In this document: in pieces, positions 798-57,378 of the stretch
Position numbering within the stretch: position 1 is the stretch's first letter
Layout: every line of letters begins with the position of its first letter
From: Physcomitrium patens
Lineage: Eukaryota > Streptophyta > Bryopsida > Funariales > Funariaceae
DNA length: 64,000 bases
Direction: 5' to 3'
NCBI RefSeq assembly: GCF_000002425.4
Contig: NC_037258.1
Coordinates: 2,215,964 to 2,279,963 of the forward strand
The notes under the pieces: generated by a model
Seen by the model: the letters and a program-made list of their open reading frames with translations, nothing else
What the model was told of the DNA's origin: nothing
The model's database searches: none
Program-made: the position numbers and the translations under genes

Positions 798-1361
798 TAT
801 TAAAGATAAGAACTTAATAAAGGCAAATAAAGATATGAGAATTTTTTCAAGAAAAGATAACAAAATAGAAATAAGAAAGTATATATATTCAAAAAAAACT
901 AGAATGGCTATTGTCAAAAGACAAGAAAATTAAAGATCCTTGAAACTAGATTAAAAGCAAGAAAAGAATTGACAAGAGTGAAAAATATTTTACTTTTGCC
1001 TCCATACATATTATCTAATTAAGAGCTATATGGTACTATTCTATAAGACTTCTAATACATGTTCAATTTGCAAAACATGTTCAATTTGCAAAACATGTAT
1101 CTTAACTTGTAAGGCAAATTTTCTATATGTGCATCATAAGGTTAGCTTGTACCATAAGCTACCAATACATATAATACATGGTAAAGTTTTTAGCCAAATC
1201 TTCAACCTATCAATTATCTTTAAATATGCAAACAAGTAAAATTGCATCTATATAGCTTTTAGGAAGTTTTTTTTATAAAATATTATAAAATTAAGCTATT
1301 TTTATGTACTTCTATCTATTTGTATTATCTAGGTAATTATTGAAATAAATATGTATGTTTA
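798..1361 (-). repeat. 3' LTR of chromovirus A
   Basis: About 564 bp that match, as reverse complement, the LTRs of elements C and F (shared blocks around the 'atgtggcccacatgt', 'tagctcttagtta' and 'cactcttgtcaatt' segments). On the minus strand it starts with TGT near 1361 and ends in TTAATA near 798. It contains AATTGACAAGAGT on the plus strand (967-979), the same 13 bases found just after the 5' LTR of element C. An 18-bp unit is tandemly duplicated at 1058-1093. Boundaries are by alignment to sister copies and good to a few bases. Confidence 0.7.
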
Positions 1362-6176: not shown

Positions 6177-6181
6177 CCTAA

Positions 6182-6635
6182 TATCATAGACATATACATA
6201 TAAGTCAATAATTACTTGAATAAATAGATAGAAGTAAGTAGAAGTAGGTCAAAATAAGTTAATTCTATAATATCTTCTATAGAAGCTTCCTACAAGCTTT
6301 ATAGATACTGCTTTGACTTTATAAGTATCTATAATTGATTTTTTAGGTTAAAAAAGTAATCAACAAGTTAGCCATGTGCCACACATGTTGCTAGCTTGAA
6401 GACCAAGCTAATTATGTGGCCCACATGTAGAAAAACTTGCCTTATAAGTCAAAGCATGTGTCATACAAATTCAACACATATTGGAGGTCCTATAAATCAT
6501 CACCACATAGCTCTTAGTTAGATAGTATATATAGAGATAAGAGTGAAGCCCTCTTCACTCTTGTCAATTTCTTTCTTGCTTCTAGTCTAATTTCAAGAGT
6601 ATCAAGTTTTCTTGTCTTTTGACAATAAGCATTCT

Positions 6636-6687
<52 letters not shown>

Positions 6688-6774
6688 CGTACTTTCTTAT
6701 TCCTATTTTTTAACCCTTTCTTGGATACGGATTTCATTGATTTAGGCATCATCTTTTAGTTCTTATCCTTGATA
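6182..6774 (+). repeat. 5' LTR of chromovirus C
   Basis: 593 bp beginning TATCATAGACA and ending CTTGATA. The end is fixed by the 3' LTR, which ends TTTGATA followed by the target duplication. It contains a TATATATA box (6526-6533), a perfect 10-bp hairpin (6539-6562) and a 44-base poly-T run (6638-6681) that is only a few bases long in the 3' LTR. The LTR ends in TA rather than the usual CA. Confidence 0.8.
6526..6533 (+). promoter_or_regulatory. TATA box of the chromovirus C LTR
   Basis: TATATATA lies in the middle of the LTR. About 31 bp downstream is a pyrimidine-purine step (C6556/A6557), a reasonable transcription start. The 3' LTR keeps a related box near 17129. Confidence 0.5.
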
Positions 6775-6787
6775 AATTGACAAGAGT
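6775..6787 (+). promoter_or_regulatory. Putative self-primer binding site of chromovirus C
   Basis: AATTGACAAGAGT starts at the first base after the 5' LTR. Its exact reverse complement ACTCTTGTCAATT is at 6557-6569 in the same LTR, at the predicted 5' end of the transcript. In the sister element F the corresponding 13 bases after the 5' LTR (minus strand, 52071 downwards) match this site at 10 of 13 positions. No TGG-starting tRNA complement abuts the LTR. Self-priming through such pairing is established for Tf1 of fission yeast; its use here is inference. Confidence 0.6.
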
Positions 6788-6980
6788 ACACTTATAATAT
6801 CAGAGCTTTGTTTTGATTTAATTAATAGTGGATTATCCCTTTCTCATCATAAGACATAAGCATATTAGAAGTTGTAGATTGCTCTCTTCTAATTTGATGT
6901 TATTCTTAGTATTTTCTTTGTCCTCAAGTCTTTTCTTGTACTTGTCTTGAGTAGTATTAGATATTTTTTTTACTGTTATT

Positions 6981-8715: not shown

Positions 8716-9464
8716 TGAATTGGTTGAATTCAAGGAACATATTAAAAAGAATCTAGCAAAGAATTTCATGTCATTTCAAATCACTAGTAGGAGCTCCAAT
8801 CTTATTTATGAAAAAAAAAGATATGTCATTGTAGATGTGTATTGATTATCAAGGACTCAATAAGATTACCATCAAGAATAGGTACCTTCTACCTTTGATA
8901 TTTGGACTTTTCAATCAATTGAATCAAGCAAAGATCTATACAAAAATAGACCTATGAGAAGCATACAATCTAGTACGCATTGAAAAAGGAGATGAATGGA
9001 AGACTGCGTTTCAAACTAGGTATGGATATTTTGAATACAACGTCATATCTTTTGGACTCATAAATGGACTGACAGCTTTTCAACATCTAATGAATGATAT
9101 TTTTTTAGAGTTTTTAGATAATTTTGTTATTTGTTATCTAGACGACATCTTGATCTATTCTAAGAACACAAATAAATATGAACTTCATGTTTGTCATGTA
9201 TTTTAATAATTAAGAGATGCGAAACTCTATGCCAAAATAGAAAAGTATATAGTCCATACTACTCAAGTCGACTTCTCAAGATACATCATTTCAAATGATG
9301 AACTTATGATGGATTCTAAGAAAGTTCAAACAATTATAGATTAAAAGATTCTAAAATTGGTAAAAGATGTCTAATACTTTTTGAACTTTACCAACTATTA
9401 TCAGATCTTCATCAAAGACTTTTCTCGAGTTGCAGCTCCACTTACACATTTGAATTACAAAGAT
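8716..9464 (+). pseudogene. Reverse transcriptase of chromovirus C, 5' part
   Basis: Ty3 RT blocks are recognisable across several frames: a degenerate VDYRxLN region near 8840, a FGL/F region near 9050, and the catalytic [11 protein letters not shown] at 9135-9167. Numerous stops and frameshifts are present. The copia element D interrupts it at 9469, and the pol text resumes at 14689. Confidence 0.75.
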
Positions 9465-9469
9465 AAAAC

Positions 9470-9828
9470 TGTTGGAGTAAAAGATAAAGATGTTGAGATA
9501 AATAGGTAATAGTAAAAGTAAAATAAGTTATCTTATAGAGAATATTCTCTTAGGTAAGTTGCTAATGGTCAAAGGCAACTAAGGACTAAGTGGCAGCTAG
9601 GATCTCGACAGACGGCTAGGTTTAGAGTCTCGAGAGGCGGTTAAGTTTAGGGACTCGAGTGGCGGCTAGTTATAGATGAATGTGGATGAAGTCTATACAT
9701 ATTAGATGTAAACTCTGATTATAAGTAATGGGTGTTGGAAGTAAGAGTCATCTCATTCCACACTTCTCTTATGTGCAACCTTGCTGATTTCTACTTACTT
9801 GTGTTATGCTTATAGTATTTCTTCAATA
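9470..9828 (+). repeat. 5' LTR of copia element D
   Basis: 359 bp, TGTTG at the start and CAATA at the end, identical in length to the 3' copy. Both copies end in TA. A short tandem repeat with a ~25-bp period built on 'cggctaggtttag...ctcgag' lies at about 9591-9666. Confidence 0.92.
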
Positions 9829-9842
9829 GGTTATGGGCCCAC
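9829..9842 (+). promoter_or_regulatory. Primer binding site of D: matches the initiator tRNA-Met anticodon arm
   Basis: GGTTATGGGCCCAC starts right after the 5' LTR. It is the reverse complement of the plant initiator tRNA-Met anticodon stem-loop (GTGGGCCCATAACC), not of the tRNA 3' end. Drosophila copia and yeast Ty5 are known to prime from such an internal cut of initiator tRNA-Met, so a half-tRNA primer is likely here. Confidence 0.8.
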
Positions 9843-10311
9843 TCACTCTCTGTTGTGCTATTCAAGTAAGTTGAAGTCATTTTCTCTTTGTTGCTTTTGT
9901 GTGGATTATATCTTATGGTATTTGTTGATGTTAGGTTTGTTGGTATAAAGAGGCTATTGGTATTAAACTTATACATCGCTAACATTGCTTTTTGGGTTCT
10001 TATCTCTTTGCTTTGTGAGATTAAGACTTTGTAGAAAGACCTTGATAGTGTCTTTTGAGTTGGTGAAGTTTCTTCATTATCCTTGAGTGTTTTGATGAGA
10101 AAGTGATTAAGACGAGTGATTGTGAGTTCCATGAGGGTGCAATTACTTGTAGAAAGCTTCACAAGTTGAATTGAAAGTGTTTTCAGTGAGATACCACTCT
10201 TTTGTTTATAACAGGGCATTCTGAGATTCTGCTAGTACAAACTTCGTTTGGTGACTTTAAGCTTTTAGAGACTCCTTCTCTCAATATTTTTTGATACACT
10301 CCTCCTTAGAC

Positions 10312-11040
10312 ATGGCTTCTAGTGAGGGTGAAGATTTGAGAGTGATTGAGAAGTTTAGAGGCAACAATTTCTACCATTGGAAGGTCAAAATGGAGCTTTT
10401 GTTGGCGTCTTTGGACCTTTGGGACATTGTAGATGAGAGTGAAGACCCTCCAAGCATAGATGCAAGCCCTAAGGACCACAAGGACTTCAAAAGACGTGAA
10501 AAGAAGGCTTTTGGCATGATTGCCATCAATTTGGATGAAGCCAACTTTTCTCACATTATCCATTGCAAAGGACCAACGGAAGCATGGAAGACACTTTGCA
10601 ACATATATGAGAGCAAAAACTTGTCCAACATCCTCTTCACAAGAAGGAAATTCTTCACTTGTAAGATGGAAGAAGGTGAAGACCTCATGGCACATGTTAA
10701 TAAGGTAAAGGCTCTTGCAAATCAACTCGCAATTATTGACAAGCCTTTAGAGGATGGTGATATTGTCATGACTCTCCTCATGAGTCTTCCCGAGTCCTAC
10801 AACTACCTCATTGTGGCATTGGAGTCTTTGAGGTTGAAAGAGCTTACAATGGACTATGTGACATCAAGACTTGCACATGAAGTAACTAAAAGGAAAGAGA
10901 AGGAGCATCAAAGTGAAGATTCAACTCTCTTCTCAAGACAAGGCAAAGGTACCTATTCCAACCAACGTAAAAATGTGAGAAGCAATGCAAGAACTTGCTT
11001 CATTTGTAGAAACCGGGTCATTTTGCACGAAATTGCTACA
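10312..11040 (+). pseudogene. Copia gag of element D (UBN2-type), frameshifted at the zinc knuckle
   Basis: The frame opens MASSEGEDLRVIEKFRGNNF and continues with FYHWKVKMELLLASLDLWD, the typical start of copia Gag (DUF4219/UBN2 family), which coats the element RNA. An alpha-helical, charged Gag body follows. The zinc knuckle starts C-F-I-C-R near 11000, then a one-base loss shifts the frame. In the shifted frame it continues PGHFARNC, completing CX2CX4HX4C. About 230 codons precede the break, a normal length for copia Gag. Confidence 0.85.
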
Positions 11041-11250
11041 AGGCCAAGAAAGAAAATAGAGAAAATGCTAACAATGCATGTGATGAAGTTGGTGGAGATG
11101 ATTATGCATTCATGGCAAATGAAGGCACGTCTATGGCTGCCATGTCCAAATGGATCATTGATTCAGGTGCTACCAAGCACATGACTCCATACAAGTGTTC
11201 ATTTGACACTTATGAGACTATTCCAACAACAAAAGTATGATTAGGAGATA
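11041..11250 (+). pseudogene. Copia protease of element D
   Basis: In the frame that continues the zinc knuckle, WIIDSGATKHMT (11149-11184) is the aspartic protease active site (D-S-G) of copia elements, which cuts the Gag-Pol precursor. A TGA at 11238-11240 sits where a tryptophan is usual (V-W-L-G-D). The conserved LHVPKMKKNLLSVSKL block that ends the protease region follows at about 11337. Confidence 0.8.
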
Positions 11251-11255
11251 ATGGC

Positions 11256-12780
11256 ATGATGCAAGCCATTGGAATTGGCTCCATTGTGGTGGAGATTGTT
11301 GTGAAGAATCAAATGAAGAAGATCAGATTGAAGGAAGTGTTACATGTGCCAAAGATGAAGAAAAACCTTCTTTCGGTGAGTAAACTTGTTTCTCATGGTT
11401 ATAAGGTGCAATTTGATATGAATGGATGCTTTGTGAAGACAATGGATGGAGATAATGTTTTGAAAGGCTTTAGAGATGGCAATCTTTACTTCATCAATTG
11501 TAAGAAGGTGAATGGAGTTGAAGTGGCGGCATTTGCTGAATTTCCACAAGATCAAGACAAGTTTGGCATTTGCCATCGACGCCTTGGTCATTTGAACGCC
11601 AAAAGTATGAAGGAGCTCCAATCCATGGTTGGTGGCTTAGATCTTGGTCAATCATGTACAAATCTTACTTGTGAAAGTTGTATTCAAGGCAAACAACAAA
11701 GAGCCTCATTTCCAAGTAGAGTTGCAACACGTGCAACCAAATTGTTGGAGATTGTGCATTCTGATGTTTGAGGACCTATGAGGACACCATCAATGGCAGG
11801 ATCAAGGTACTTTGTTACATTTATTGATGACTTTTCAAAGAAGGTGTGGATTTTCATCCTTAAATCCAAGAGTGAATGCTTTTCAAAGTTTAAGGAATTT
11901 AAGGCACTTGTGGAGAAGCAATGTGAGTGCAAGATTAAGATGTTGCGTACACACCATGGAGGTGAGTATTTGTCAAAGCATTTTGATGAGTATTTGAAGA
12001 TTCATGGTATTGCAAGATAAACTTCCACTCCCTATACTCCACAACAAAATGGAGTTGCTGAAAGAGCAAATCGAACTATTGTGGAGATGGCAAGGACTAT
12101 GATTCATGCTCAAAACCTTGGGCATGAATTTTGGGCGGAAGCTATGGTGAATGCAGTGTATACAAGGAATAGGTGTCCTACAAATGCACTTACATCAATG
12201 ACTCCACAAGAAGCTTGGAATGGGAGGAAACCTTGTGTTTCACACATGAGGACTTTTGGATGCATTACTTATGCAAAGGTACCAGATTGTATGCGATCCA
12301 AATTTGATGCAAAAGGTACAAAATGTGTGTTTCTTGGATATTGTGAAGGTACCAAGGCATATAGGCTAATGTGTTTGGATACCAAGAAGATCATCAAAAG
12401 GTGTGATGTTGAATTTATGGAGCATAAAAGTGCTTGTGAGCACTTGGAAATGTGTCCAAGTGAGAGTAATGGTGTGTTTGTGGACACATCTTCAATTTCA
12501 GCAACAAAAGAAGAAGAAGAAGAAGAAGATGAAGACAATGAAGATAGTGGAGATTTGAATCAACATGAAGAACCAAAGAAGATGAAGAAGAAGAAGAAGA
12601 AAGTGTATACAATTGGTATGACAAACAATGAAGAAGTTGAAGATGATGATGATGATGAGGAATACCAACCTTTGAGTGAGAAGAGACAAGGTTCAAAAGA
12701 AAAGAAGGTTGGAGAGCATCAAGATGAATCTTCTTCAAATGATAGAAGATATCCTACAAGAGAAAGAAAACAACGTGGTG
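11256..12780 (+). pseudogene. Copia integrase of element D
   Basis: The zinc-binding HHCC part is at about 11571-11696 (H-RRLGHLN and C-ESCIQGK). The catalytic core follows: first Asp in HSDV (11758-11768), then RTHHGGEY at about 11946, where the second catalytic Asp is expected but His is read, and the Glu in QQNGVAERANRT (12046 onwards). Stops at 11769 (TGA) and 12018 (TAA) break it. A C-terminal GKKP-like WNGRKPCVSHMRTFGC block (12218 onwards) is present. The linker to RT has runs of Glu, Lys and Asp (12508-12660), then the PTRERKQR motif and two consecutive TAG codons (12783-12788). Confidence 0.85.
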
Positions 12781-12788
12781 AATAGTAG

Positions 12789-13890
12789 AAGGACCACATC
12801 TTTCCTCAAGTAAGTGAAGAACATGCAAATATTGCACTCTTTGCTGATCCATTGAATATATGTGATGCTATGAAGTCTACGAATGCGTTGAAGTGGGAGG
12901 AGGCTATGGAAGAAGAGTACAAATCTCTCATGAGCAATGAAACATGGGAATTGACTCAACTTCCACCAAATCGATTTCCACCAAATTGGTTGTAAGTGGG
13001 TGTTTAGAACCAAGAGGGATGCAATGGGTGATATTGTGAGATATAAGGCAAGGTTAGTTGCCAAAGGATACTCACAAGTTGCTGGTATTGATTTCAATGA
13101 GACATTTGCTCCCATGGCTAAGTTCACTACCATTAGAACCATTGTGGCAATTGGGGCAGCAATGGACTTAGAGATGCATCAAATGGATGTGAAGACGGCT
13201 TTCTTGAATAAAGAGTTGAAAGAAGACATCTACATGGATCAACCTCAAGGATTTGTAGAAGAAGGCAAGCAATATCTTGTTTGTAAGTTGAAGAAATCCT
13301 TGTATGGACTCAAGCAATCTCCAAGGGCATGGTATCAAAGAATTGACACATTCTTTATTAATGAGGGATTCCAAAGAAGTGAGGCTGACCATTCTATGTA
13401 TGTGATACAATCAAAAGAGTTCTTGATGATTGTTATTCTTTATGTAGATGATTTAATCATCTTAACCAATACTCTAAAGATGATAGAATGGTTGAAGGTA
13501 AAGTTAGAAAAGGAATATGAGATGAGTGATTTGGGAGAGTTTCACTATTGCTTAGGAGTGGAATTTACAAGAAATCGTGCTAACAAGACCATCACAATGA
13601 GCCAAAGGAAGTACATTGAAGGAGTGTTGAAACGATTCAACATAGAGGATTGCAAGCCTATTGGAACACCTTTGGAGTCCAATTTGAAGTTGATGAAGCT
13701 CACGGATGAAGAGTTTGTACAAGTTGAAGGCCAAATGTAAGGTGTTCGATACAAGGCAGCAGTTGGGTCATTCATGTATGCAATGATTGGCACAAGGGTG
13801 GATCTTGCTTATGCGGTGAGTGTCGTAAGTCAACACATGTCAAAAGCAGGACCACTTCATTAGGCAACCATCAAGAGGATCATGAGGCGG
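12789..13890 (+). pseudogene. Copia reverse transcriptase of element D
   Basis: Text begins around ALKWEEAMEEEYKSLMSNETWEL and is frameshifted near 12990 next to a repeated 'ccaccaaat'. A clean 246-codon frame (13000-13740) follows with YKARLVAKGYSQ, QMDVKTAFLN, KSLYGLKQSPRAWY and the catalytic YVDDLII (about 13441). TAA at 13738 and TAG at 13861 replace codons usually Gln and Trp. Family relatives make cDNA from the element RNA; this copy cannot make a full protein. Confidence 0.9.
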
Positions 13891-14313
13891 TCAACAACGG
13901 GCTATGTATTCTTTGTTGGAGTGGGAGCAATTTCATGGAATTGCAAGAGGCAACCCACAATTGTAAGGTCCACAATGGAGGCGGAGTACATGGCAGCAAG
14001 CCATGGTGCAATGGAAGCAACATAGTTAAGGCAAGTTTTGGAGGACATTAGACTTGTACAATTGGAAGCAACTCTATTGAATTGTGACAATCAAGGATGC
14101 CTTGCTTTTGCAAAGAATCCAAAGCATCATTCAAGAACCAAGCACATTGACATTCAACATCACTTTATAAGAGAGAAGATTGAAATGGGAGTGATTGACT
14201 TGAAGTATTGTGCAACAGAAGATATGCTTGCTGATTTGTTAACAAAGGCATTGATAAAAGATAGACATCATATGTTGACAAAGGTATTAGGTTTGAAGGG
14301 CTTTGACAATTAG
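13891..14313 (+). pseudogene. Copia RNase H of element D, with internal deletion
   Basis: The text passes from [10 protein letters not shown] straight to RSTTGYVFF. In copia relatives about 35 residues lie between them, including the Y-L-K-G-T strand and the CDADWAGD block with the first catalytic Asp. The rest is preserved: [50 protein letters not shown] and DMLADLLTKAL, ending FDN at 14313. A TAG at 14023 replaces a conserved Trp. It runs to within about 10 bp of the 3' LTR. Confidence 0.85.
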
Positions 14314-14324
14314 CAAAGTAGGAG

Positions 14325-14683
14325 TGTTGAGGTAAAAGATAAAGATGTTGAGATAAATAGATAATAGTAAAAGTAGAATAAGTTATCTTGTAGAGAATAT
14401 TTTCTTAGGTAAGTTGCTAATGGTCAAAGGCAACTAAGGACTAAGTGGTGGCTAGGGTCTCAATAGACGGCTAGGTTTAGAGTCTCGAGAGGCGGTTAAG
14501 TTTAGGGTCTCGAGTAGCGACTAGTTATAGATGAATGTGGATGAAGTCTATACATATTAGATGTAAACTCTGATTATAAGTAATGGATGTTGGAAGTAAG
14601 AGTCATCTCATTCCACACTTCTCTTATGTGCAACCTTGTTGATTTCTACTTACTTGTGTTATGCTTATAGTATTTCTTCAATA
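14325..14683 (+). repeat. 3' LTR of copia element D
   Basis: 359 bp starting TGTTGAGG and ending CAATA, preceded by a purine-rich tract (14312-14324, aaagtaggag core) and followed by the aaaac target duplication. Confidence 0.92.
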
Positions 14684-14688
14684 AAAAC

Positions 14689-15110
14689 TTGAGTAGAGCA
14701 AAGAAGTTGAAGCTTCTTTTGAAACTTTGAAGTCAGCCTTTATTTCTATACTAATCTTATATTGTATTAAATTTTTTAAGGTATTTTTTATGCAAACAAA
14801 TGCATTAGACTTTGCTTTAGATGTCATATTATCACAAATAGGAACAGATGATAAACTTCACCTAATAGCTTTTTATTCTAAAATTTTTTCAATAGCCAAG
14901 ATTAATTATAAAATCCACAATAAAGAACTTCTTGTAATTGTGGATTCATTTCAAGAATAGTGTCATCATCTAGAAGGCGCTTCTAATTCAGTCACTATAT
15001 ATACAGATCATAAGAATCTCGAGTACTTTATGTTAGTACATATTTTAAATTATTGCCAAGCCTGTTGGATCATGTCTTTATGAAGATTTGATTTCAAGAT
15101 CACGTATCAA
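14689..15110 (+). pseudogene. RNase H of chromovirus C (resumes after D)
   Basis: Immediately after the duplication the Ty3 polyprotein text resumes: MQTNALDFALDVILSQ then HLIAFYSKIFSIAKINYKIH NKELL. This is the Ty3 RNase H pattern (D-A-S-x-x-A-x-G-x-V-L-S, Y-x-x-S-x-x-x-x-x-A-x-x-N-Y, E-L-L-A-I-V). The open frame is 14727-14960, then it breaks. Confidence 0.75.
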
Positions 15111-16791: not shown

Positions 16792-17347
16792 TATCACAAC
16801 CTTTAAGATGATGCAATAATTACCCATATAAATAAATAAAAGTAAGTAGAAGTAAGTAAAAGTAAGTTGATTCTATAATATCTTCTATAGAAGCTTTTTA
16901 GAAGCTTAATAGATGATGCTTTGACTTTATAAGTATCTATAATTGATATTTTGGATTAGAAAAGTGGTCAACAAATTGGCCATGTGCCACACATGTTGTT
17001 AACTTGAAGACCAAGCTAACTATGTGGCTCACATGTAGAAAAACTTGCCTTATAAGTCAAGGCATGTATCCTGTAAAGTCAACACATATTGGAGGTCCTA
17101 TATAACATCACCACATAGCTCTTAGTTAGATAGTATATAGAGAGACAAGAGTAAAGCCCTCTTCACTCTTATCAACTCTTTTCTTACTTCTAGTCTAGTT
17201 TCAAGAGTCTCAAGCTTCTTTATCTTTTCACAATAAGCTATTCTAGTTTTTTTTAATATACATACTTCCTTATTTCTATTTTTTTACTCTTTCTTTAACA
17301 CGGATTTTATTGATTTATGCATCATCTTTTAGTTTATGTCTTTGATA
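16792..17347 (+). repeat. 3' LTR of chromovirus C
   Basis: About 556 bp beginning TATCACAACC and ending TTTGATA, followed by the cctaa target duplication. It is clearly diverged from the 5' copy, more than the LTR pair of D, consistent with C being older than D. Confidence 0.75.
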
Positions 17348-17352
17348 CCTAA

Positions 17353-17859: not shown

Positions 17860-20540
17860 AGAGCCAAATGAAGGAAAAAATTGACTACTTTATATAATTG
17901 AAGCCCTCAAAATCCTTGTCTATAAATTTATATAGACCTCTTTTATAATAGATTTTTTTATTGTGTACTAAGGCTTATTAGAAAACAAACAATAAGATCT
18001 ATTTTTTTTTCAAAATCTCAAAACAAAAAGATAAAGACGTAATAAATGGCATAAAAAAACTTGAACTAGTCTTGAATCTTATTGCCCAAAAATTCTAATG
18101 ACCTCCCTACTACAAATTTTCATAGATTTTTCTTGTCACAACTTCTTTTCTTGAGTACTAAAGCTTGTTAGAAAGCTAAAAATAAGATCAATATTTTTTT
18201 TAAATCTCAAAAATAAAGATGAAGATATAATAAATGGCATCAAAAAATTTAAACGAGTCTTGAATCTTACAACTCAAAAATTCCAATATCTTTCTTCTTT
18301 CAAATTTACATAGATCTTCCTTGTCACAATTCTTTTTCTTGTATAGAAAAACCTTTTAAGAAATCTCACAACAAGCTCTAATTTCTTTCAATATTTCAAA
18401 ATAAAAAGATGAAGATGTAGTAAATGGCATGAAAAAACTCAAATTGGTCTTGACTCTTGCTGCTTAAAAATTCTAGCGACTTTACTCCTATAAATTCATA
18501 TAGATCTTTCTTTTCATAGCTCTTTTTTTTACATGCTAAGATTCTATAGAAAGCTGAAAATAAGATCTAGCTTTATTCAAAATTTTAAAAATAGAAATGA
18601 AGATGGATTAAATGGCATAGAAAAACCTAAAATAATCTTAAATCTTGCTTCTTAAAAATTCCAATGACTCCTCTCCCATATATTCACATAGATCTTTTTT
18701 TTCACAATTCATTTTCTTGCATACTAAGCCTTATTGGAAAGTTAAAAATAAATTCTAACTTCTTTTACAATTTCAGTTAGAAAAGATAAAAATCCAACAA
18801 ATGACATGAAAAAATCTGAACTAGACTTGAATCTTGCAGCTCAAAAATTCTAGCCACCTCCCTTCTACAAATTCATATATATATATATATATATCCTTTA
18901 TTATAGTTATTTTTTCATATACTAATGCTTTTTGGAAAGCTTACAAAAAGATCAAGCTTTCTACAAAATCTCAATATAAAAATAAAAATAAAAATGTAAT
19001 GAATGGTATGAAAAAAGCCAAACCAGACTTGAATCTTATTGCTCAAAAATTCCAACTACTCTCCTACAAATTCATATAGATCTTCCTTATCACAATCTCT
19101 TTTTTTGTATGTTAAAAATTATTAAAAATTTAAAAATAAGATCTGGCTTCATTCAAATTTTCAAAACAAAAAAATAAAGATGTAATAAATGCCATAGAAA
19201 AATCCAAATCAGTCTTGAATCTCATTCTTCAAAAGTTCCAATGACCTTAACACAACCTCTTTTTTTGTATGCTAAAACTTATCAAAAATTTTAAAATAAG
19301 ATCTGGCTTCTTTCAAAATTTCAAAAAAAATAAAATAAAGATGTAATGAATGCCATAGAAAAATCCAAATCAGTCTTGAATCTCATTCTTCAAAAGCTCC
19401 AATGACTTGCTTTCCACAAATTTGTATAGATCTTCTTTGTCACAACTCCCTTTCTTGTGTACTAAAGCTTATTTAAAAGTTAACAATAAGTTCAAGTTTT
19501 TTTTAAATTTCAACATAAAATGATGAAAATGCATAAAATGGCATGAAATAACTTAAACTAGACTTGAATCTTGCAACTCAAAAATTCTAGCCACTCCCCT
19601 CCTACAAATTTACAAAGATCTCATTTATGACAATTTTTTTTTATTTACTAAAGCTTATTAAAAAGCTAACAACAATATGTAGATTTCTTCAAAATCTCAA
19701 TATAAAATGATGAAGATGTAATAAATGGCATGGAAAAACCTAAACTAAACTTAAACCTTGCAACTCAAAAATTCTAATATTCCCCTTCTTATAAATTTCG
19801 ATAGATCTCTTTCATCACAACTTTTTTTTACATGCTAAGCCTTTTTAAAAAGCTCACATCAAGCTCTAGCTTCCCCCAAAATTTCAAAAAAAAATGAAGA
19901 TATAGTAAATGGCATGGAAAAACTCGAATCAATCTTGAATTTCACTGTTAGAAAATTCCTACAACTTTATTCTTACAAATTTACATAGATCTGTTTTCTC
20001 ACATCTCTTTTTCTTGCGTGCTAAGGCTTTTTGGAAAGCTTATAATAAGATCTAGATTTTTTCAAAATCTCTCAATAAAAAGATGAAAATACAGTAAATG
20101 ACATAAAAAAACCTAAATTAGTCTTGAATCTCATAGCTCAAAAATTCTAGTGACTCTCTTCTTACAAAGTCATATAGATCTTTATTATCATAGCTTATTT
20201 TTTTACATACTAAATTTTATTAGAAATTTAACATAAAGCTATAGTTTCATTCAAAATTTCAAAATAAAAAGATGAAAAAGTAATAAATGATATGAAAAAA
20301 TCCAAACCAGTCTTGAAACTTATTCTTCAAAAATTTGCATAGATCTTCCTCTTCATATTTTTTTTTTCTTACATACTAAGGCTTATTATAAAGCTAACAA
20401 TAAATTCTAACTTTCTTCAAATTTTCATCATAAAAAAATCAAAAGATAATAAATGGCATCAAAAAATCCAAACTAGTCTTGAATCTCATTGTCCAAAAAT
20501 TCTAGTGATTTCTTCTCTCCCCTACATCACACTAGCTCCA
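17860..20540. repeat. Tandem array of a ~187-bp unit inside element B
   Basis: A unit with the landmarks 'tcttgaatct', 'ctcaaaaattc', 'tacaaattcatatagatctt', 'tactaaagcttatta' and 'aaatggcatgaaaaaa' recurs head to tail. The first landmark appears near 18071, 18258, 18449, 18637, 18826, 19027, 19213, 19375, 19562, 19749, 19932, 20122, 20310 and 20476. Spacing is mostly 183-190 bp, with two short units (161 and 166) and one long unit (201, carrying a (TA)n run). Copies are diverged. The array ends just before the putative primer site and 5' LTR of element B. Confidence 0.85.
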
Positions 20541-25518: not shown

Positions 25519-25590
<72 letters not shown>

Positions 25591-25600
25591 TTATCAATAT
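24822..25600. repeat. AT-rich stretch with long (TA)n microsatellites
   Basis: Long runs of TA occur at about 25206-25247, 25330-25375 and 25519-25588, the last about 70 bp. No gene was seen. Reading frames through the TA runs give meaningless Tyr/Ile repeats. Confidence 0.8.
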
Positions 25601-25619: not shown

Positions 25620-26127
25620 TGGAAGTAAATAAATAAGAGAGACGTTTTTAAATTAAAATAACATAATAGAAATATGAAGATATGTATATTCAAAAAGCAA
25701 ATTAAAATGACAATTGCTAAAAGATAAAAAAATTAGAGATCCTTAAAATTAGACTAAAAAGAAGAAAAAATTTGATAAAAATGAAGAAGGCTTTACTCTT
25801 GTTTCTATATATACTATCTAATTGCTAGATATGTATCTTAACTTTTAAAATAAGTTTTTTATACTTGTGCCACATAATTAGTTTTTACCACAAGCTACCA
25901 ATACATATGACATATTGCTAACTTATTTGATAATTATTCAACTTACTAATTATCTTTAGATGTATATAAAGATAAAATTGCATCTATAAAGCTTTTAAAA
26001 AGCTTTTTTATAAGATATTATCAAATTAATCAAATTTTACCTACTTATATCTATTCATATTATCTAAGTAACTATTGGAATAAATAAATAAATATATATA
26101 TATATATATATATATATCCATAATGAT
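25620..26127 (-). repeat. Orphan LTR of the A/C/F chromovirus family
   Basis: It matches the family LTR as reverse complement over its length, including the 'gaagaaggctttactcttg', 'gccacataattag' and 'aagatattatcaaatta' blocks, and ends near a (TA)n run at 26092-26117. It is either the displaced 5' LTR of chromovirus A or a solo LTR. The distance to the gag start across the gap is too long for an undisturbed 5' LTR. Confidence 0.6.
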
Positions 26128-38393: not shown

Positions 38394-39998
38394 ATGGACT
38401 CGCCAGGAGCAAGAATTGTTGTGTTTGTGTGTGTCATGGTTGCGCTCTTCGGGGTGGCCTTCTCCGCTCAGAGCTGCAATGTACTGTTGACCTCCAACAG
38501 ACAATTCACGGCATGTCAAACGATCCCAGAGGTTGGAGCTAACCTAGCATGGAGAATTCGAAACGATAGTAGCAACGCCATCGACTTTGCTTACTCCGGT
38601 GCGTAACATGTCAGACCACATGGAGGAAAACCAGATAAACTCATAGTGATGTTGGAGAAATTTTGTTTGATATTTAGCAAACTTCGGTGAGTTAACGAAT
38701 TTAAGTTGCTAATTGATGTCGTCGCACAGGTACGGCCCCAAGTGCCAGTGGATGGGTCGGCTGGGGCATCAACCCCGCGGGGGCAGGAATGGTGGGCACT
38801 CAGGCTTTGATCGCGTTTCAATCCACAACTGGCGCTGTCGTATATCAATATCCTGTCACTGGGGCGGTGAAAGGAGGACAGTCTCTCATACCAGGAGACC
38901 TCACCCTCAACTTCACAGACACTTCTGCCGTGGTTTCTGGTGCAGAAATGACGATCTTCTCCACACTGAACTTGAAAGCGGGTGATTCGATGAGTATGCA
39001 GTACGTCTGGGGTCAGGGACGCACCGTCGACCTGACCAACAATGCCGTAGGACCGCACTCAATTCCTATCTCTGGTGACGCTGCCGTCACTAACATCGAC
39101 TTGTTAACAGCCCAAGCGTCCACCGTCGAACTCCCCAACCAAAAACTCAAAAATGTACGCCATCAGTTCAATTATTTGCAATTCTTTTATTTTTATTTCG
39201 CAAACTGTCTAGTTGTCAAGAGCGAAACGATTGAGACGCAGGTGATTAGAATCTGACGCACTCGACGATTAAATTGCACAGAACCATGGCTTGATCAGTG
39301 CCGTGTCATGGGGCTTGCTGATGCCGCTGGGAGTGATGGCAGCCCGGTACTTGCGTCCCATTTCAGGCAGCAATCCAGCGTGGTTCTACACCCACATAGC
39401 ATTCCAATGCACGGGATACGTCTTGGGCGTGGTGTCCTGGGCGCTGGGATTGAAGCTTCACAACCTCAATGAGGGTGGCGCCGTTCCTTACAAGCATCGC
39501 AACATCGGCATTAGCATCTTCGCATTAGCCACTCTACAGGTGAAGCATTCAAACCTGAAGTAATTTCAATGGAATAGACGTCGAAGCGATAATCAGTTAC
39601 TCCTAAAGATTTATGAGAGCTCCATTTTAAGTTAAATTGGCTTCTCAGACATATTGTTCATTTTTCCACCGTTTCAGGTCCTTGCTCTGCTCCTGAGGCC
39701 CAAGCCGGACGCGAAGTACCGAAAGTATTGGAATATCTACCACCACACCGTCGGCTACGCCACCATCATCCTTATCATCATCAACATCTTCGAAGGGCTC
39801 GATTTGCTGCAGCCTGAGGACAAGTGGACAACGGCCTACGTCATTGTGTTGTGCGTTCTGGGCGGCATCAGTCTGATCATGGAGATCGTCATCTGGACCT
39901 TGTGGGTGAAGCAGCGAACCAAAAACAACAAGGACGGCATGCACGGCAGCCAAATGAAAGGAACCGGATCTTACAGGACCGGACAGGATGTCGTGTGA
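38394..39998 (+). CDS. Cytochrome b561 and DOMON domain-containing protein (CYBDOM)
   Basis: Membrane electron-transfer protein: an outer DOMON domain that binds heme, joined to a b561 core that moves electrons, usually from ascorbate, across the membrane. Exons 38394-38598, 38730-39154, 39282-39539 and 39678-39998 have GT-AG introns of 127-138 bp and consistent phases, giving 402 residues, the normal family length. Residues 1-25 form a signal peptide (VVFVCVMVALFGVAFSAQSC). DOMON spans about 45-170, including GWVGWGINPAGAGMVGTQAL. The b561 core is about 205-375 with five membrane helices. His212 (NHGLIS), His248 (FYTHIAF), His282 (YKHRNIG) and His318/319 (IYHHTVGY) are the heme ligand positions. 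The tail is basic and Gly-rich. Arabidopsis has about ten such proteins. The start is the first ATG of the frame; a weak TATA-like 'cataaaag' lies about 110 bp upstream. Confidence 0.95.
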
Positions 39999-45594: not shown

Positions 45595-46125
45595 TATCAA
45601 GAACATGAATCTCAAAGAAAAAAATCCTCAATATATTCTTGTATTATTCAAAAAAACTAAGAAATCATTAAAAAAAAAGATAGTATATTAAACTAGAATG
45701 GTTATTTCTTAAGACGAAAAAATTAGAATGTCTTGAAATAAGACTAAGGACTACAAAGGTATTGATAAGAGTGAAGAAGATTTCACTCTTGCTTCTATAT
45801 ATACTATCTAACTACAAGCTATGTAGCAATGTTCTATAGGACATCTAATACTTGTTAATTTTGCAAAAAATGTATCTTAACTTGCAAGGTAAGTTTTCTA
45901 TATGTACATCATAAAATTAATTTGTTTTTGTAAGATGCTAATATGTAATTAATGTTTTGATGAAGTTTCTAATCTAACAATCAACTTCAAACATGTTTAA
46001 AATCAACTGCGTCTATGAAGCTTCTAAAAATCTTTTTTAGAAGATATTATAAAATTAATTTATTTTTATTTATTTCTACCTAATTATATAGATAATTATT
46101 GAAGTAAATATATATGTCCATGATA
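45595..46125 (-). repeat. 3' LTR of chromovirus F
   Basis: 531 bp; on the minus strand it starts TATCATGG and ends CTTGATA, directly beside the atatg duplication. Confidence 0.8.
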
Positions 46126-47244: not shown

Positions 47245-47688
47245 TTAATGAAAGGCCTTAATTCTCTTTGCTACATTTATAAGATTCTTTAATAGCTCCC
47301 ATGTATATTTACTAATATCATATCTATGCCAATGAACTAGATATTTCAACCTATTTTGGTGCAATCTTAAATTTAAGACTTCTTCTACCTTTAATTCTTG
47401 ATTATTATCCACTTCTATAAGAGAAAGTGGCATTTTTCTTTTTTTTGAGATACTCACTGTCTCATATGGCTCAAAAAGAGACATGTAGAATATAAGATGG
47501 ATATTCATAGATTCTAATAGATATAATTGATAAGCAATATAATTGACTTGTTTTGTAATAAAAAAAAGGTCTAAACCTACAATAGTCCAACTTGTCACAA
47601 TGATAAGTAATCTTGATATTATGATAGAATAATCATATCTTGTCATTCGTGTTAAATTATGGTTGTTCCTTGCGATAGGCATCCACAT
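47245..47688 (-). pseudogene. Integrase C-terminus with chromodomain of chromovirus F
   Basis: The longest open frame of the element (147 codons). Its first third is the degraded GDKVWLFRQNI / W-T-I-V-G-L-D region of the integrase tail, then AYQLYLLESMNIHLIFYMSL and EPY. After an acidic I-E-V-D-N-N-Q linker comes a full-length chromodomain: VEEVLNLRLHQNRLKYLVHW, then YDISKYTWELLKNLINV. The aromatic and W-E positions of the fold are present. Family chromodomains bind modified histones and steer integration. It is cut off from any functional pol. Confidence 0.85.
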
Positions 47689-49914
47689 TGATCTTTTGTT
47701 ATTCTTGAGCTTCTTTTAATTATACCTTCATTATTATAAGTAGATTTGATAAATGATTTTTTAAATCTTCTGCTATAGGATTATCAACTTTGGAATGGCC
47801 AAAAATACCAAGTCTTAGATGATAACCATAATTGGCAAAAAAAGGTGTTTATTAAGTAGAAGAATATATTGAATTATTGTATGCAAACTCTGCCAATGTT
47901 AAAAGAATTGTTCAATCATTTTGATGGTAATTAATGGTATACCTCAAATATTGCTTTAGATTTTGATTCATCCATTTTATTTGTCCATAAATTCAAAGAT
48001 AAAAAGTTAATAAAATATTTATATCTATCTTTAAAAACTTAAAAAAGATTCTCTAAAATCTTGATATAAATTGAATCTTTTCTATTCAATATAATATCCT
48101 TGAATAATCCATAATAGCAATAGATATTGTTAAAAAAAAACTTTGTTATTTCTTTACTTGTGATATATTTTTTATATAGTAGAAAATGTGGCATCTTAAT
48201 AAAAAAAAATCTATTATTATAAATATAAAATCATACAAATTTGAGATTGAAAGATCTATGATAAAGTTCATAGAAGCAAAAGACTATGATTATTCTCAAA
48301 TAGATAATGGCTAAAAAAGTTGATAAGGTCAATGATAAGGAATTTTGGATCTTGAAAAAAATATCACATGATTATACAAAATCTTTGACTACCTTTTACA
48401 TTTGAAGCTATGAAAAAATTTTAAATATTAGATTCAATATCTTGTTATATCCAAAATATCTGGTTGTTAGAAAATCATCACAAGCTTAATGAAGATGTAA
48501 TCATTCTTTGTCTTTTAGAATATATAATCATCCTTCAAAGTAGAGTAGATTATTCTTAGAAATATCATAAGATTTAAAAAAATTATTCTTGAACTTTAAC
48601 TTGAAAGTATCATAAGACTTAAAAAAATTATTCTTGATATCATGAATAAGAAGATCAAAAGATATATTTGATTGAATTTGCTTAACAAAGGGTGAATAAA
48701 TAATCAATGTTAATTTTATTGCTTAAAGATGAAAATGCTATGACTTAAAGAAAATCATTCTTTATTGATTATGAGTTGTATTTTTTTCTTTTGGTATAAG
48801 ATAAGAATGTTTAGAAATGATAAGTGATAAATTTTATTATTTTTTGGATCTATATGTGATCTTGTAATCAAATCTTAATAAAAACATACTCCAACAAGCT
48901 TGGCAATGATTCAAAATACATGCCAATATAAAGTACTTCAAGTTCTTATGATCAATATATACAGTAATTAGACTAGAAGCACCTTCTAAATAATGATGTC
49001 ATTCTTAAAATAAATTTATAATTACAAAAAACTCTTTTTCATGGATATCATAGTTAAACTAGATTATTAAAAATTTCTTAGAATAAAAAGCTATCAAATA
49101 GAGTTTATCATCTACTTCTATTTGTGATAAAATAACATCTATAGTAAATTTTGATAAATTTTTTTCTATAAAGAACACTTTAAAAAAATCAATGCGATAC
49201 AAAATTGGTACAAAAATAAATTTTGTCTTTAAGGCTTCAAAAGATGTTTCAACTTCTTTGATCTAATGAAATTTGTCTTTACATATGAAATGTATAAGAA
49301 AAATTGCAACTTTAGAAAAGTTCTTAATAAAAATTTGATAATAATTAACAAATCTCAAAAAATATTACATATCTTTGACTATTTTTGGAACCTTCTAATT
49401 TATGATAGTCTCAACCTTCTTAGGATTCATCATTAATCTTTTGTTGGAAATAATATATCTCAAGAAATTAACTTAAGTAGTGTTGAATATACACTTTTCC
49501 ATCTTTACATATAATCTTACATCTTTAAGTTTTTATAATACATGATAAATATGAAATTCATATTCTTTTATATTCTTAGAGTAGATTAGAATGTTGTTTA
49601 AATAATAGACAAAAAAATCATCAAGAAACTCATAAAAGATATCATTTATGAGATGTTAAAAAGCAACTAGTGCATTCGTGAGTCCAAAAGGCATGATATT
49701 ATATTTGAAATGTCCATACCTAGTTCAAAAAGTAGTCTTCTACTCATCTCCTTTTTTGATGTGGACCAAGTTGTATGATCTTTATAGATCTATTTTTGTG
49801 TAGATCTTTATTTGATTGAGTTAGTCAAAAATTCCTAAAATCAAAGGTAGAAGATACCTATTCTTGATGGTAATCTTGTTAAGTAATTGATAGTTTACAT
49901 ATATCTACAAAGAT

Positions 49915-51358: not shown

Positions 51359-52380
51359 ATTATAAAAGAATTATAAAAAATATATATATATTAATGGTGC
51401 AAACATAAAAAAAATTTCACTTTTAGATAGAAGTGCATCTATGAATCCAACTTGAGTAAATCCATCAAGGTATTAGAATGAATTCAACATTAGATAGAGC
51501 TTCACTTATTGTAGAAATCTTCAAAATTTTGATCTTCTTCCATCAATCTTCTTGGGCATATTAATCATTGTCCTCGTTGTACTTGTAGAAGCAAAACTTC
51601 ATAGATTTGATTGTAGGTCTATCTACTTGCTTCTTTCAACTACACAATTTCTTGACATAGATTCTAAACTTCTTTCATAGGCATAGGATTAGTGTTTTGG
51701 TGATTCGTCCTTGTGATGTATGAAATTTCCACTCTAAGAATGTTGAGAAGTTCGTGAAGAATTACAATAGTTGAAATTTTTTTTTTTTTTTTCCACCAAG
51801 TATAGCATCCATAATTTTCTTTCTATTTTAAAAAACTTAATAAATCTACAAGTCAAATTAGATGAAGATATTTTGCAACCTCTAATATTGAATGAAAGTT
51901 TCTACAAAGAAGGATAATCCGCTTTCTTTGAGAAAAAAATTAATGTTACAAAATTAAACAGTTTATTTAAAGGTAGGTAATCTGCAACCTTTAAAATACA
52001 ACAATTGAAATAGGATAATCTACTCACTTTTAAATTAAGATAAGAACAATAAGTTAGAACTTTTATCAAATTATTAAGGACTTGAATCTCAAAGAAAGAA
52101 ATCCTCAATATATTCTTTTGTCACTCAAAAAGATCATAAAATGACTATAAAGGGTAGTATATTGAATTAGAATGGCTATTGCTAAAGACAAAAAGATTAG
52201 AAAGTCTTGAAAGAAGACTAAAAACTATAAAGGCATAGACAAGAGTGAAGAAGGCTTTATTCTTGCCTCTATATATAATATCTAACTAGAAGTTATGTTG
52301 CGATATTCTATACAACCTCCAAAATATATTGACTTTAGAAGATACATATCTTAACTTGCAAGGCAAGTTTTCTATGTATG

Positions 52381-53169
52381 TGTAGAATAGATATTAATTC
52401 GTTTTTGAAAGATATTGATAAAATATATTAATAGTCCATATACTAGGAAATTCAGGAGGATGGATGAGTGATTTAGTTATTAAAAGCGGTTAATTACAAA
52501 ATTACGGTTAGAATCTGGAGAATCAGGAGAAAGTATATAGGAGTTGTAGAAGTTAATTAAGGTGCCAGACTATGATAGTCATGAGCCGAGAGCCATCGTT
52601 GTGATAGTGTGAGCTAGAGTAAGCTTGGTGCTATCTCTTTTCTTTTGTTTGTTATTTTCTTTGAATAAGAAGATTGAGAGTTTCTAAATATTGTGAAGTG
52701 AATTATGGAATGGAAATATGATTGGTATTATTTGAAAAGAAGAAAGATTGAATGCTGAAATCTGATTGTAGTTCAGCAGAGAATGAGTCTGTGTTTGTGT
52801 GAAACACCATAATGTGAATGGTAGTTCTATGTGAAGAATTCCAGTGATTGGAATGAGGGTAACTGTATGTTGAAAGCTGTGAGGGCACAATATTATAATT
52901 GAAGATTATGAGGGTGAATATATTGGTGGAAATAGCAGTTATTGGTATGACTGAATTGTTGTAAGGAAGAGACCGATAAGATAAAGGAGGAGATTATAGT
53001 TTCCTTGTGTGTTCAGACATTGGAAATAGAGACGATAAATTCAGGAGGTAATTGATTGTGTGACCCTAACGTGAACGCTTAAGCAACTAGTCATTCCCCA
53101 TGTTCGAATCTCCCTATACATGTTTATTTTTGGAGGTTTCTTCTGAAATAAGTAAAACGAGCAATCACA
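52381..53169 (+). repeat. 5' LTR of element G
   Basis: 789 bp beginning TGTAGAATAG and ending AATCACA; it matches 57718-58508 almost throughout. Near its 3' end, GTTCGAATC (53102-53110) resembles a tRNA T-arm or Pol III B box. Confidence 0.92.
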
Positions 53170-53172
53170 TTT

Positions 53173-53190
53173 TGGCACCGCTGTCGAGGA
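53173..53190 (+). promoter_or_regulatory. Primer binding site of element G (tRNA-Asp type, mutated)
   Basis: TGGCACCGCTGTCGAGGA, three bases after the LTR, matches the plant tRNA-Asp complement TGGCGCCGTTGCCGGGGA at 14 of 18 positions. All four differences are transitions. Athila and Tat elements are known to use this primer. Confidence 0.7.
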
Positions 53191-53246
53191 GTGATAATAG
53201 CTTTGAATGTTAGGAATTAATTACCAAAAGTGTGAGAAAATTGGCA

Positions 53247-53726
53247 ATGGAAGACAATTTCAATAGTGTTTGAAGCAAGATTATGGTTAATAAGAACAAG
53301 AGCATTGCATCGAGGAAAATAAATCAGTTGAGAAAAAGACAGAGAAGAGCGCAAGGAAGAAACTTTCTTAGAAAGGAGCAAGAACGTAATCTTAAAAGGA
53401 AGCATCGACAGAATTAGATTAAACCATGGTTGCAAGTTTGTCGGCGCATCCGAACATATCAAGAACCAGAGAGACTATTAATTTTACAATCGTATGTACC
53501 GTTAGAAAAATTGCCAAGAACACTTGCGGAAAATTTTGTAAACATTCCAGTGGAAATCTTGAAGCCATTAACTGAAAGAGAAGGAGGCATAGAAGAATTT
53601 GGTACTCCATTTGGTATTTTTTCAGTAGGGGGTACCACTGAAACGAGCAATAGGGGCTCTTTAGATTGGCACAAATTGATCGCTAATAAAGATAACTATA
53701 TTGTATTTCAAAATCTGATGTTTTGA
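53247..53726 (+). pseudogene. Basic upstream ORF of element G (before gag)
   Basis: From ATG 53247 one frame of about 160 codons is interrupted only by TGA (53271) and TAG (53415). It encodes a strongly basic N-terminal half (many Arg and Lys, such as RKINQLRKRQRRAQGRNF) and a neutral to acidic C-terminal half (PLTEREGGIEEFGTPFG). I do not recognise it. Ogre and other Tat elements are known to carry an extra ORF of unknown function before gag, so this may be that ORF. Confidence 0.5.
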
Positions 53727-53855
53727 CCTACAATTCAACCAATAAAACTAATTGCGGAAAATAACAATAAATCGAGGAGCACTGAGAGTTGAGAAATTAA
53801 AATAAGGGAAAGCAGAGATTATTTTAAAACGGAGTTTAGCGGAACAAGAAATTCA

Positions 53856-55990: not shown

Positions 55991-56039
55991 CAAAGATCCC
56001 GCACTAAAAAAATTCATGAAGTTAGCTTAAACCCAGATC

Positions 56040-56344
56040 CGAGAGCACCAATAATCGATGTATCAATCGATGGCATTTTAATTCCAAGGGTACAAATCGA
56101 TGGTAGCTCCAATGTGAATTTAATGAACGTAGATACAATGGAGGACTTGGATCTAAAGCAATTGCTACCTACGACATTGGACTTACGAATGGCAGATCAT
56201 AGTCAGATAAAGCTAATGGGAATCTTATGCAATATTGCCATTGTAATCGCAGGATTGACATACAAAATCGATTATATTGTATTCCGATTACAGAGTTTTA
56301 CGTTATCGTATCCCATTTTATTGGACAGACCTTGGCTTTATTAA
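56040..56344 (+). pseudogene. Retropepsin of element G
   Basis: RVQIDGSSNVNLMNVDTMED lies where Tat/Athila proteases have a D-G-G/S-S-x-V-N active site. It is followed by LRMADHSQIKLMGILCNI and YPILLDRPWLY, the standard end of the protease before RT. Open from 56114 to 56344 in one frame. Confidence 0.7.
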
Positions 56345-56879
56345 GCCAAAGCTAAGAACGATTGGGGTCGAGGCACATTGACAATTGAAAAAGGTCGTGG
56401 TCAGATTATTTTACAGATGTACCCGATACAATATCATGGAGAATCTCAATTGCCAGAATGAGAATTTACATCGGACAACGAGAGTCAATCGATTGAGGCA
56501 GATGACGATGCTATAGGTTCACCGCAATTTGGGGTAAGACAAAACACTTCAACAACAAAGGCAGGAGTCTACCAATATAGAGGCCCCGGTGAATATTTAC
56601 TATATCAGGAAGATGCGACTAACTCGGATCATGCTATTGCCGAATGGATGAACAATTTTGCAGTCAATAGAGTCAGCACATTGGAACCAAATTTGGTTGG
56701 TTCCCATATGTCGGATAATATAAGATATTCAAATCAAGAGAAGATAATTAAATCAGAGGTTGTTGAAGACCCTGTGTGTCAATCTATTAACCTGGGCACC
56801 AACGAAACGCCACAGCTAATTAAAATATATGTCAGTATTATCAGTACAGAATTAGATGCTTGAAAATAATTTTTCATCC

Positions 56880-57235: not shown

Positions 57236-57378
57236 AATAAAAGAATAGGAGTGGGGCACTAGTTAAAGTCATTTTGTGGTGTTGTTTTGGGTTGGCTGGA
57301 ATGCCATTTTCTTGTATTTCTTGTGTTTTCGAGAGTAGTAGTTCCAGTTAAGAGTTAATAGTGAGGAGTCAGTTATAA

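What the first reader, a model, noticed from the sequence alone, without database searches (positions are those of the whole stretch)
6557..6787. A plant chromovirus that appears to self-prime, as fission yeast Tf1 does
The 5' LTR end at 6774 is fixed by the 3' LTR end and the cctaa target duplication. The very next 13 bases (6775-6787, AATTGACAAGAGT) are an exact reverse complement of 6557-6569 in the LTR. That segment begins about 31 bp after the TATATATA box at a C/A step, where the transcript should start. A chance 13-base match placed both exactly after the LTR and at the predicted cap site is very unlikely. In Tf1 the first 11 bases of the RNA pair with the site after the LTR and prime cDNA synthesis. 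No TGG-type tRNA site abuts this LTR. The sister element F keeps 10 of 13 bases at the same place, and its 3' LTR pairs with that site at 10 of 13. The LTR of element A (967-979) has the same 13 bases. Self-priming is established in Tf1/sushi-type chromoviruses of fungi and vertebrates; I know of no established plant case.
Basis: partly seen in the sequence, partly recalled or inferred. Interest (0 to 1): 0.9.

Follow-up and report, generated by a model that had tools for sequence, protein, structure and literature searches.

The report
Self-priming moss-type retrotransposon family
A very abundant jumping gene in what looks like a moss genome seems to start copying itself with the tip of its own RNA instead of a borrowed tRNA; this trick is known from yeast and has already been predicted for relatives in mosses and clubmosses.

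Summary
The 13 bases after the 5' LTR (6775-6787) are an exact reverse complement of 6557-6569, which starts 31 nt after the TATA box. Genome-wide, a pattern with the first 11 nt and their complement at the right distance occurs at 3632 places (backwards control 0); the 13-nt version at 52. A copy with 531/531 identical LTR positions and a target duplication keeps the 11-nt pairing but not bases 12-13. So the conserved unit is an 11-nt self-primer and an 11-nt primer-binding site 2 nt after the LTR end. Target duplications fix that end in 6 of 15 scorable elements. In 54 of 54 junctions the best tRNA-Met-type site has 2 or more mismatches. The reverse transcriptase groups with frog and Tremellales sequences, not with 6 angiosperm rows (100/100). 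Best reading: a Tcn1-type (Tf1/sushi) chromovirus that self-primes, in a plant that is probably a moss. This is not a first: Neumann et al. 2019 already predicted self-priming for the majority of moss and clubmoss Tcn1 elements. New here are the size of the sample, the 11-nt boundary and the very young copy. RNA 5' ends, primer cleavage and covariation between families remain untested.

The parts
6182..6774 (+). 5' LTR of element E (reads TATCA...TGATA; several copies read TGTCA...TGACA)
   Evidence: TSD CCTAA at 6177-6181 and 17348-17352; offset 0; alignment
6526..6533 (+). TATA box (TATATATA)
   Evidence: TATATAT at the same ungapped spacing in 46 of 49 junctions with a found R site
6557..6567 (+). 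predicted RNA 5' end and 11-nt self-primer (ACTCTTGTCAA); 6568-6569 extend the match in this copy
6775..6776 (+). 2-nt spacer between LTR end and core PBS (AA here, GA in the L035 copy with identical LTRs)
6777..6787 (+). 11-nt primer-binding site TTGACAAGAGT, complementary to 6557-6567
6795..6806 (+). tRNA-Met-PBS-like string TAATATCAGAGC in the leader; lacks TGG; ATATCA[AG]AGC found in 26 of 54 junctions
6536..6565 (+). inverted repeat spanning the predicted cap site (GATAAGAGTGAAG-CCCT-CTTCACTCTTGTC)
   Evidence: read; left arm starts GACAAGAGT in 12 of 49 copies, near variants in most others
8958..9203 (+). reverse transcriptase fragment (RVT_1) of element E
9470..14683 (+). nested Ty1/copia element, not part of E (LTRs 9470-9828 and 14325-14683, TSD AAAAC)
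14697..14957 (+). RNase H fragment of element E
16814..17347 (+). 3' LTR of element E, about the first 25 bases lost; R site 17165-17177 pairs with the PBS at 11 of 13
25587..25599 (-). post-LTR site of element F (TATTGATAAGAAT); its R site is 25770-25782
52059..52071 (-). post-LTR site of element G (ATTTGATAAAAGT); R sites 52234-52246 and 45760-45772
47248..47715 (-). integrase C-terminal part of element G with chromodomain
   Evidence: Pfam Chromo 1.1e-08
967..979 (-). R site of element A, identical to that of E

Best explanation
Element E is an old, broken copy of a very abundant chromovirus of the Tcn1 (Tf1/sushi) type. Its RNA most likely starts at A6557. The first 11 nt (ACUCUUGUCAA) fold back onto TTGACAAGAGT, which begins 2 nt after the LTR end. 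By analogy with Tf1, the element's RNase H would cut after nt 11; the freed 3' end primes minus-strand DNA that copies the 2-nt spacer and then U5, and integrase later trims the 2 nt beyond the CA end. Shown: sequence complementarity, its position against TATA box and LTR end, recurrence at thousands of places including one copy with identical LTRs, and absence of an adjoining tRNA-Met-type site in the junctions examined. Inferred: transcript start, RNA pairing in the cell, cleavage, priming, end trimming.
For: The 13-mer occurs 2305 times in the 470-Mb genome, its backwards control 6 times. R core and PBS core with 122-182 nt between them occur at 3632 places, control 0. TSDs at offset 0 fix the LTR end in 6 of the 15 elements with both LTRs in reach. 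The element with 531/531 identical LTR positions (L035), a bystander not chosen for pairing, pairs at nt 1-11. Among 33 junctions not chosen for pairing and with a found R site, 14 have 11 of 11 Watson-Crick pairs, and 26 have 10 or 11 with G-U allowed (many of these were chosen by one of the two sites). The best tRNA-Met PBS match in the 60 nt after the LTR has 2 or more mismatches in 54 of 54. In the same window the nested copia has what I recognise (recall) as a half-tRNA-iMet site directly after its LTR. The RNA from 6557 folds with the primer-PBS duplex in the minimum-energy structure, z -4.27. The RT tree separates the family, 20 unnamed, 5 frog and 1 Tremellales rows from 6 angiosperm rows, 100/100.
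Against: No RNA data. Within the family the U5 end and leader flanking the PBS are about as conserved as the PBS, so conservation alone does not single it out. The pairing was not shown to covary between distant families. The duplex is in the predicted optimum (9 or more of 13 pairs) in 30 of 46 copies: 16 of 16 chosen for exact pairing, only 14 of 30 others. Bases 12-13 are mismatched or wobble in the youngest copy. The extra Tf1 pretzel duplexes were inconclusive. Pattern counts include some false places: of the 15 loci, L023 is two facing LTRs, not an LTR-leader junction.
Confidence: 0.85

Rival explanations
1. The element is primed by initiator tRNA-Met at the leader string (C/T)AATATCAGAGC about 20 nt after the LTR, and the self-complementarity is incidental.
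For: TATCAGAGC is a 9-nt complement of the tRNA-Met acceptor stem (recall); ATATCA[AG]AGC is present in 26 of 54 junctions; E matches TGGTATCAGAGC at 10 of 12.
Against: The TGG that pairs with tRNA CCA is missing (no junction of 54 under 2 mismatches). Priming there should leave about 20 extra bases on the 3' LTR; in the 6 elements with a TSD at offset 0 the LTR ends before the 13-mer. Element G lacks the string.
Confidence: 0.04
2. The post-LTR match reflects duplication of the LTR inverted repeat at the cap site, whose left arm resembles the PBS core, and has no role in priming.
For: The left arm starts GACAAGAGT in 12 of 49 copies and a near variant in most others; in E it reads GATAAGAGT.
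Against: In E the match to the right arm is longer (13-14 nt, against 8 of 9 to the left arm) and begins at the predicted cap site; the copy sits exactly where a PBS must be, and the pattern recurs at thousands of places.
Confidence: 0.05
3. A fragment of another host RNA (such as an internally cut tRNA) that happens to read ACUCUUGUCAA at its 3' end is the primer.
For: Half-tRNA primers exist in plant copia lineages (PMC6317226, passage read); the nested copia here appears to have such a site (recall).
Against: It would have to coincide by chance with the element's own predicted RNA 5' end. The host tRNA set was not searched.
Confidence: 0.04

Closest known systems
Plant Tcn1-clade chromoviruses (PMC6317226, Neumann et al. 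2019; PMC2864245, 2010)
   Same: Non-seed-plant chromovirus, no adjoining tRNA PBS in most members, predicted self-priming, RT grouping with fungal and vertebrate Tf1/sushi elements.
   Different: No difference established; the PBS tables in their supplements could not be read. PMC2864245 found neither a tRNA PBS nor self-priming in SM-Tcn1 of Selaginella.
Tf1 of Schizosaccharomyces pombe
   Same: Primer is the RNA 5' end, complementary to a site downstream of the 5' LTR; 11-nt primer (the Tf1 length is from recall and the finding).
   Different: Cleavage, priming and the pretzel structure are not shown here; whether Tf1 has a 2-nt spacer was not checked.
Tj1 of S. japonicus (PMC4600332, passages read)
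   Same: PBS complementary to the mRNA 5' end; self-priming proposed.
   Different: Fungal element with transposition shown by assay.
TAR-lineage Ty1/copia elements of plants (Houba, Osr-1; PMC6317226)
   Same: Predicted self-priming in plants.
   Different: Copia superfamily; the present element is Ty3/gypsy with a chromodomain.
RLG1 of Physcomitrium patens (PMC7466625, passages read)
   Same: Very abundant gypsy family with a chromodomain integrase, probably recently active; 462.3 Mb assembled genome against 470.4 Mb here.
   Different: Identity with RLG1 not tested; inference from abundance and genome size.

Membership tests
Tf1/sushi-type chromovirus (Tcn1 clade) | RT groups with fungal/vertebrate Tf1/sushi elements rather than seed-plant chromoviruses | tested here: met
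   33-row tree, split from 6 angiosperm rows 100/100; 5 frog rows and 1 Tremellales row on the family's side (12 named and 20 unnamed of the 120 proteins listed). No named Tcn1, Tf1 or sushi reference was available.
Tf1/sushi-type chromovirus (Tcn1 clade) | Chromodomain at integrase C-terminus | tested here: met
   Pfam Chromo in element G and in many relatives listed
Tf1-like self-priming | Site just after the 5' LTR complementary to the predicted RNA 5' end | tested here: met
Tf1-like self-priming | No tRNA-complementary site adjoining the 5' LTR | tested here: met
   tRNA-Met type: 54 of 54 junctions. Other tRNAs judged only by lack of TGG starting within 0-6 nt: 52 of 54; the other two (L059 and L071) read TTGGC where most read TTGAC.
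Tf1-like self-priming | Transcript starts at the self-primer | not testable with these tools
   Only the 31-nt TATA spacing supports it
Tf1-like self-priming | RNase H cleavage after nt 11 frees the primer | not testable with these tools
   Loss of pairing at nt 12 fits but does not show it
Tf1-like self-priming | Three-duplex pretzel structure (PMC10085805, passages read) | tested here: inconclusive
   R-leader duplexes mean -16.5 against -13.2 kcal/mol for mononucleotide shuffles; R-U5 end -9.0 against -8.0 (46 copies)
tRNA-Met-primed plant chromovirus (most seed-plant clades) | TGGTATCAGAGC-type site just after the LTR | tested here: not met
TAR Ty1/copia (self-primed) | Copia-type RT (RVT_2) | tested here: not met
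   E has RVT_1; the RVT_2 hit belongs to the nested copia

The most novel reading that the evidence does not exclude
The family carries two priming devices: an 11-nt self-primer site 2 nt after the LTR, and about 20 nt after the LTR a 9-nt complement of initiator tRNA-Met, common among copies, that lacks TGG. This would be a relic or an auxiliary site from a switch between tRNA priming and self-priming, in a very abundant element of a plant genome.
Probability: 0.1. Interest if true: 0.65.

Novelty: new member of a known kind. Interest (0 to 1): 0.42.

Why it matters
Self-priming in plants rests on sequence prediction in the papers I could read (listings and the passages opened). A family with thousands of places, one copy with identical LTRs, in a probable moss genome makes it directly testable: one predicted RNA 5' end, one predicted primer length and one predicted strong-stop end. 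It also gives a precise claim, 11 nt plus a 2-nt spacer, to compare with Tf1.

Tried and rejected
A tRNA-Met site abutting the LTR was sought and rejected. An LTR end at about 6790, which would bring the tRNA-like string next to the LTR, was considered and rejected by the TSDs. Complementarity in F and G taken singly was tested and is not significant (one search used a wrong LTR end for F, corrected; one search was read one base out of register and replaced). F shows two paired changes (C-G to U-A at nt 2, G-C to A-U at nt 7) keeping 11 of 11 pairs with one wobble, but all are C-to-T-type decay and by my own reckoning chance is about one half, so it is not counted as covariation. Pretzel duplexes: inconclusive. 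A consensus structure over 46 leaders gave only a short version of the primer-PBS helix at -3.4 kcal/mol. Relatives in viral contigs: none confirmed. tRNA and Rfam scans of the window: none. A PDB search with a nested-copia ORF found nothing. A search for relatives of the DUF568 fragment gave 5 proteins, none with an organism name.

Full report
What is there. The window is a TE-rich piece of a 470.4-Mb genome (C6:2215964-2279963). Element E runs from its 5' LTR (6182-6774) to a 3' LTR that has lost about its first 25 bases and ends at 17347, between CCTAA duplications. It is interrupted by a nested copia element (9470-14683, TSD AAAAC). Relatives A, F and G lie on the minus strand. E's LTRs are 82% identical and G's 78% and 70% in two pieces; A and F were not dated.

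The complementarity. 6775-6787 is the exact reverse complement of 6557-6569, 31 nt from the first T of TATATATA. None of 3000 shuffles of this LTR gave 13/13. Folded from 6557, the RNA pairs these strands in its minimum-energy and centroid structures (z -4.27).

Genome-wide. The 13-mer occurs 1152 + 1153 times, its backwards control 4 + 2. R site and post-LTR site both exact over 13 nt, at the right distance: 52 places, control 0. Reduced to the first 11 nt, with 122-182 nt between the two sites: 3632 places, control 0. These counts select for pairing and contain some false places: of the 15 loci that one search gave, 14 are LTR-leader junctions (13 printed, L021) and one, L023, is two facing LTRs. 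So I also looked at copies not so chosen.

Copies. I fetched 16 of the 52 exact places and 40 of the 100 13-mer places listed on contig C1 (places 9-48), and with the window and L001-L008 found 54 LTR-leader junctions: 16 chosen for pairing, 14 chosen by R site, 13 by PBS, 11 by neither (for L040-L079 the label is inferred from which site is exact). The offset search (up to 8 nt) favours a PBS-like reading, and at least two rows (L047, one of L059) are probably not true junctions; they stay in the counts. Among the 25 junctions whose PBS was not selected, positions pairing with nt 1, 3, 5, 6 and 8-11 agree in 22-24 of 25; nt 2, 4 and 7 in 16, 19 and 19 of 25 (18 of those 21 variants are transitions); nt 12 and 13 in 20 and 13. 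In the 19 with unselected R, nt 1-11 agree in 14-19 and nt 12 in 11. Jointly, in the 49 junctions with a found R site, nt 12 is T-A in 36, C-A in 11 and T-T in 2; nt 13 is T-A in 34, T-G in 12, G-A in 2 and T-T in 1. So bases 12-13 vary without following each other, and the pairing core is 11 nt. Over nt 1-11, 16 of 16 chosen for pairing and 14 of 33 others pair fully by Watson-Crick; with G-U, 26 of the 33 have 10 or 11 pairs. Flanking U5 and leader positions (11-24 of 25 and 12-24 of 25) are about as conserved as the PBS, so conservation is not in itself the argument; complementarity and place are.

Place. Of 22 junctions in long sequences, 15 had a 3' LTR in reach; 6 gave a 5-bp duplication exactly at the projected end (L024 CTGTA, L025 CATAA, L034 TCTTT, L035 AGAGA, L037 CTAGG, window E CCTAA), 2 gave off-register candidates that I do not count, and 7 gave none. 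By eye G has CATAT. The L035 copy has 531/531 identical LTR positions and was a bystander in a locus fetched for another copy; it pairs at nt 1-11, mismatches at 12 and wobbles at 13. In reverse transcription the LTR end is set by the primer's 3' end (established knowledge), so the PBS must begin within a few bases of it, and there lies TTGACAAGAGT, 2 nt downstream. The 2-nt gap fits integrase trimming beyond CA (inference).

tRNA alternatives. In 54 of 54 junctions the best match to TGGTATCAGAGC has 2-6 mismatches; ATATCA[AG]AGC is present in 26, about 20 nt after the LTR where read, without TGG. The nested copia shows GGTTATGGGCCC directly after its LTR, which I recognise by recall as a half-tRNA-iMet site, a PBS type that PMC6317226 assigns to Osser, Bryco and part of Gymco-II.

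RNA folding of 46 of the 54 junctions: 9 or more of 13 primer-PBS pairs in the optimum in 30 (16 of 16 chosen for pairing, 14 of 30 others). Tf1 needs two further duplexes (PMC10085805, passages read); here these were inconclusive.

Lineage. E has RVT_1 and RNase H fragments; G has a chromodomain. The open frame of the L035 copy resembles E (75% identity over an RT stretch). Its RT (residues 150-500) gave 8000 scored matches, of which 120 were listed; the named ones are frogs (53-63%), Tremellales sp. (65%), melon (49%) and Tanacetum (46-57%). In a tree of 33 rows (query, 12 named and 20 unnamed of the 120) the family, the unnamed rows, frogs and Tremellales fall together against the 6 angiosperm rows, 100/100. 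No named Tcn1, Tf1 or sushi element was available as reference.

Host. Not named. A DUF568 fragment at 38717-39253 (a plant family by recall), the copia PBS type, the Tcn1-like RT and the genome size (P. patens 462.3 Mb in PMC7466625) suggest a moss, perhaps Physcomitrium patens; its RLG1 would fit the abundance. This is inference; a search for chlorophyll-binding proteins did not complete.

Known or new. PMC6317226 (abstract and passages read) states that the majority of Tcn1-clade elements, found in moss and clubmoss, lack tRNA PBSs and are predicted to self-prime, that no other plant chromovirus group does, and that TAR copia elements are predicted to. PMC2864245 (passages) found neither in SM-Tcn1. 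The full-text searches (listings seen) showed me no experimental plant case; most subscription papers are not in that library. So this is a well-supported member of a predicted kind.

Noticed in passing
window 9470-14683: Nested Ty1/copia element (LTRs 9470-9828 and 14325-14683, TSD AAAAC) with GGTTATGGGCCC right after its 5' LTR, recognised by recall as a half initiator-tRNA-Met primer site.
   Followed up: partly
window 6795-6806 and the leaders of sister copies: String ATATCA[AG]AGC (contains most of a 9-nt tRNA-Met complement, without TGG) about 20 nt after the LTR in 26 of 54 junctions; relic PBS, auxiliary site or chance is unresolved.
   Followed up: partly
window 6536-6565: Inverted repeat with 13-nt arms and a 4-nt loop spanning the predicted cap site; its left arm resembles the PBS core (GATAAGAGT here, GACAAGAGT in 12 of 49 copies).
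   Followed up: partly
window 17920-20530: Tandem array with a period of about 188 bp shortly after element E.
   Followed up: no
window 52381-58508: The 5' LTR of element G is split by an insertion whose ends (52381-53169 and 57718-58508) are 95% identical.
   Followed up: no
window 38717-39253 and 60400-61050: Host-gene-like fragments: DUF568 (+ strand) and an HGTP_anticodon domain (- strand).
   Followed up: partly
window 6638-6681: Run of 44 T in E's 5' LTR, much shorter or absent in its 3' LTR and in the window's other copies.
   Followed up: no
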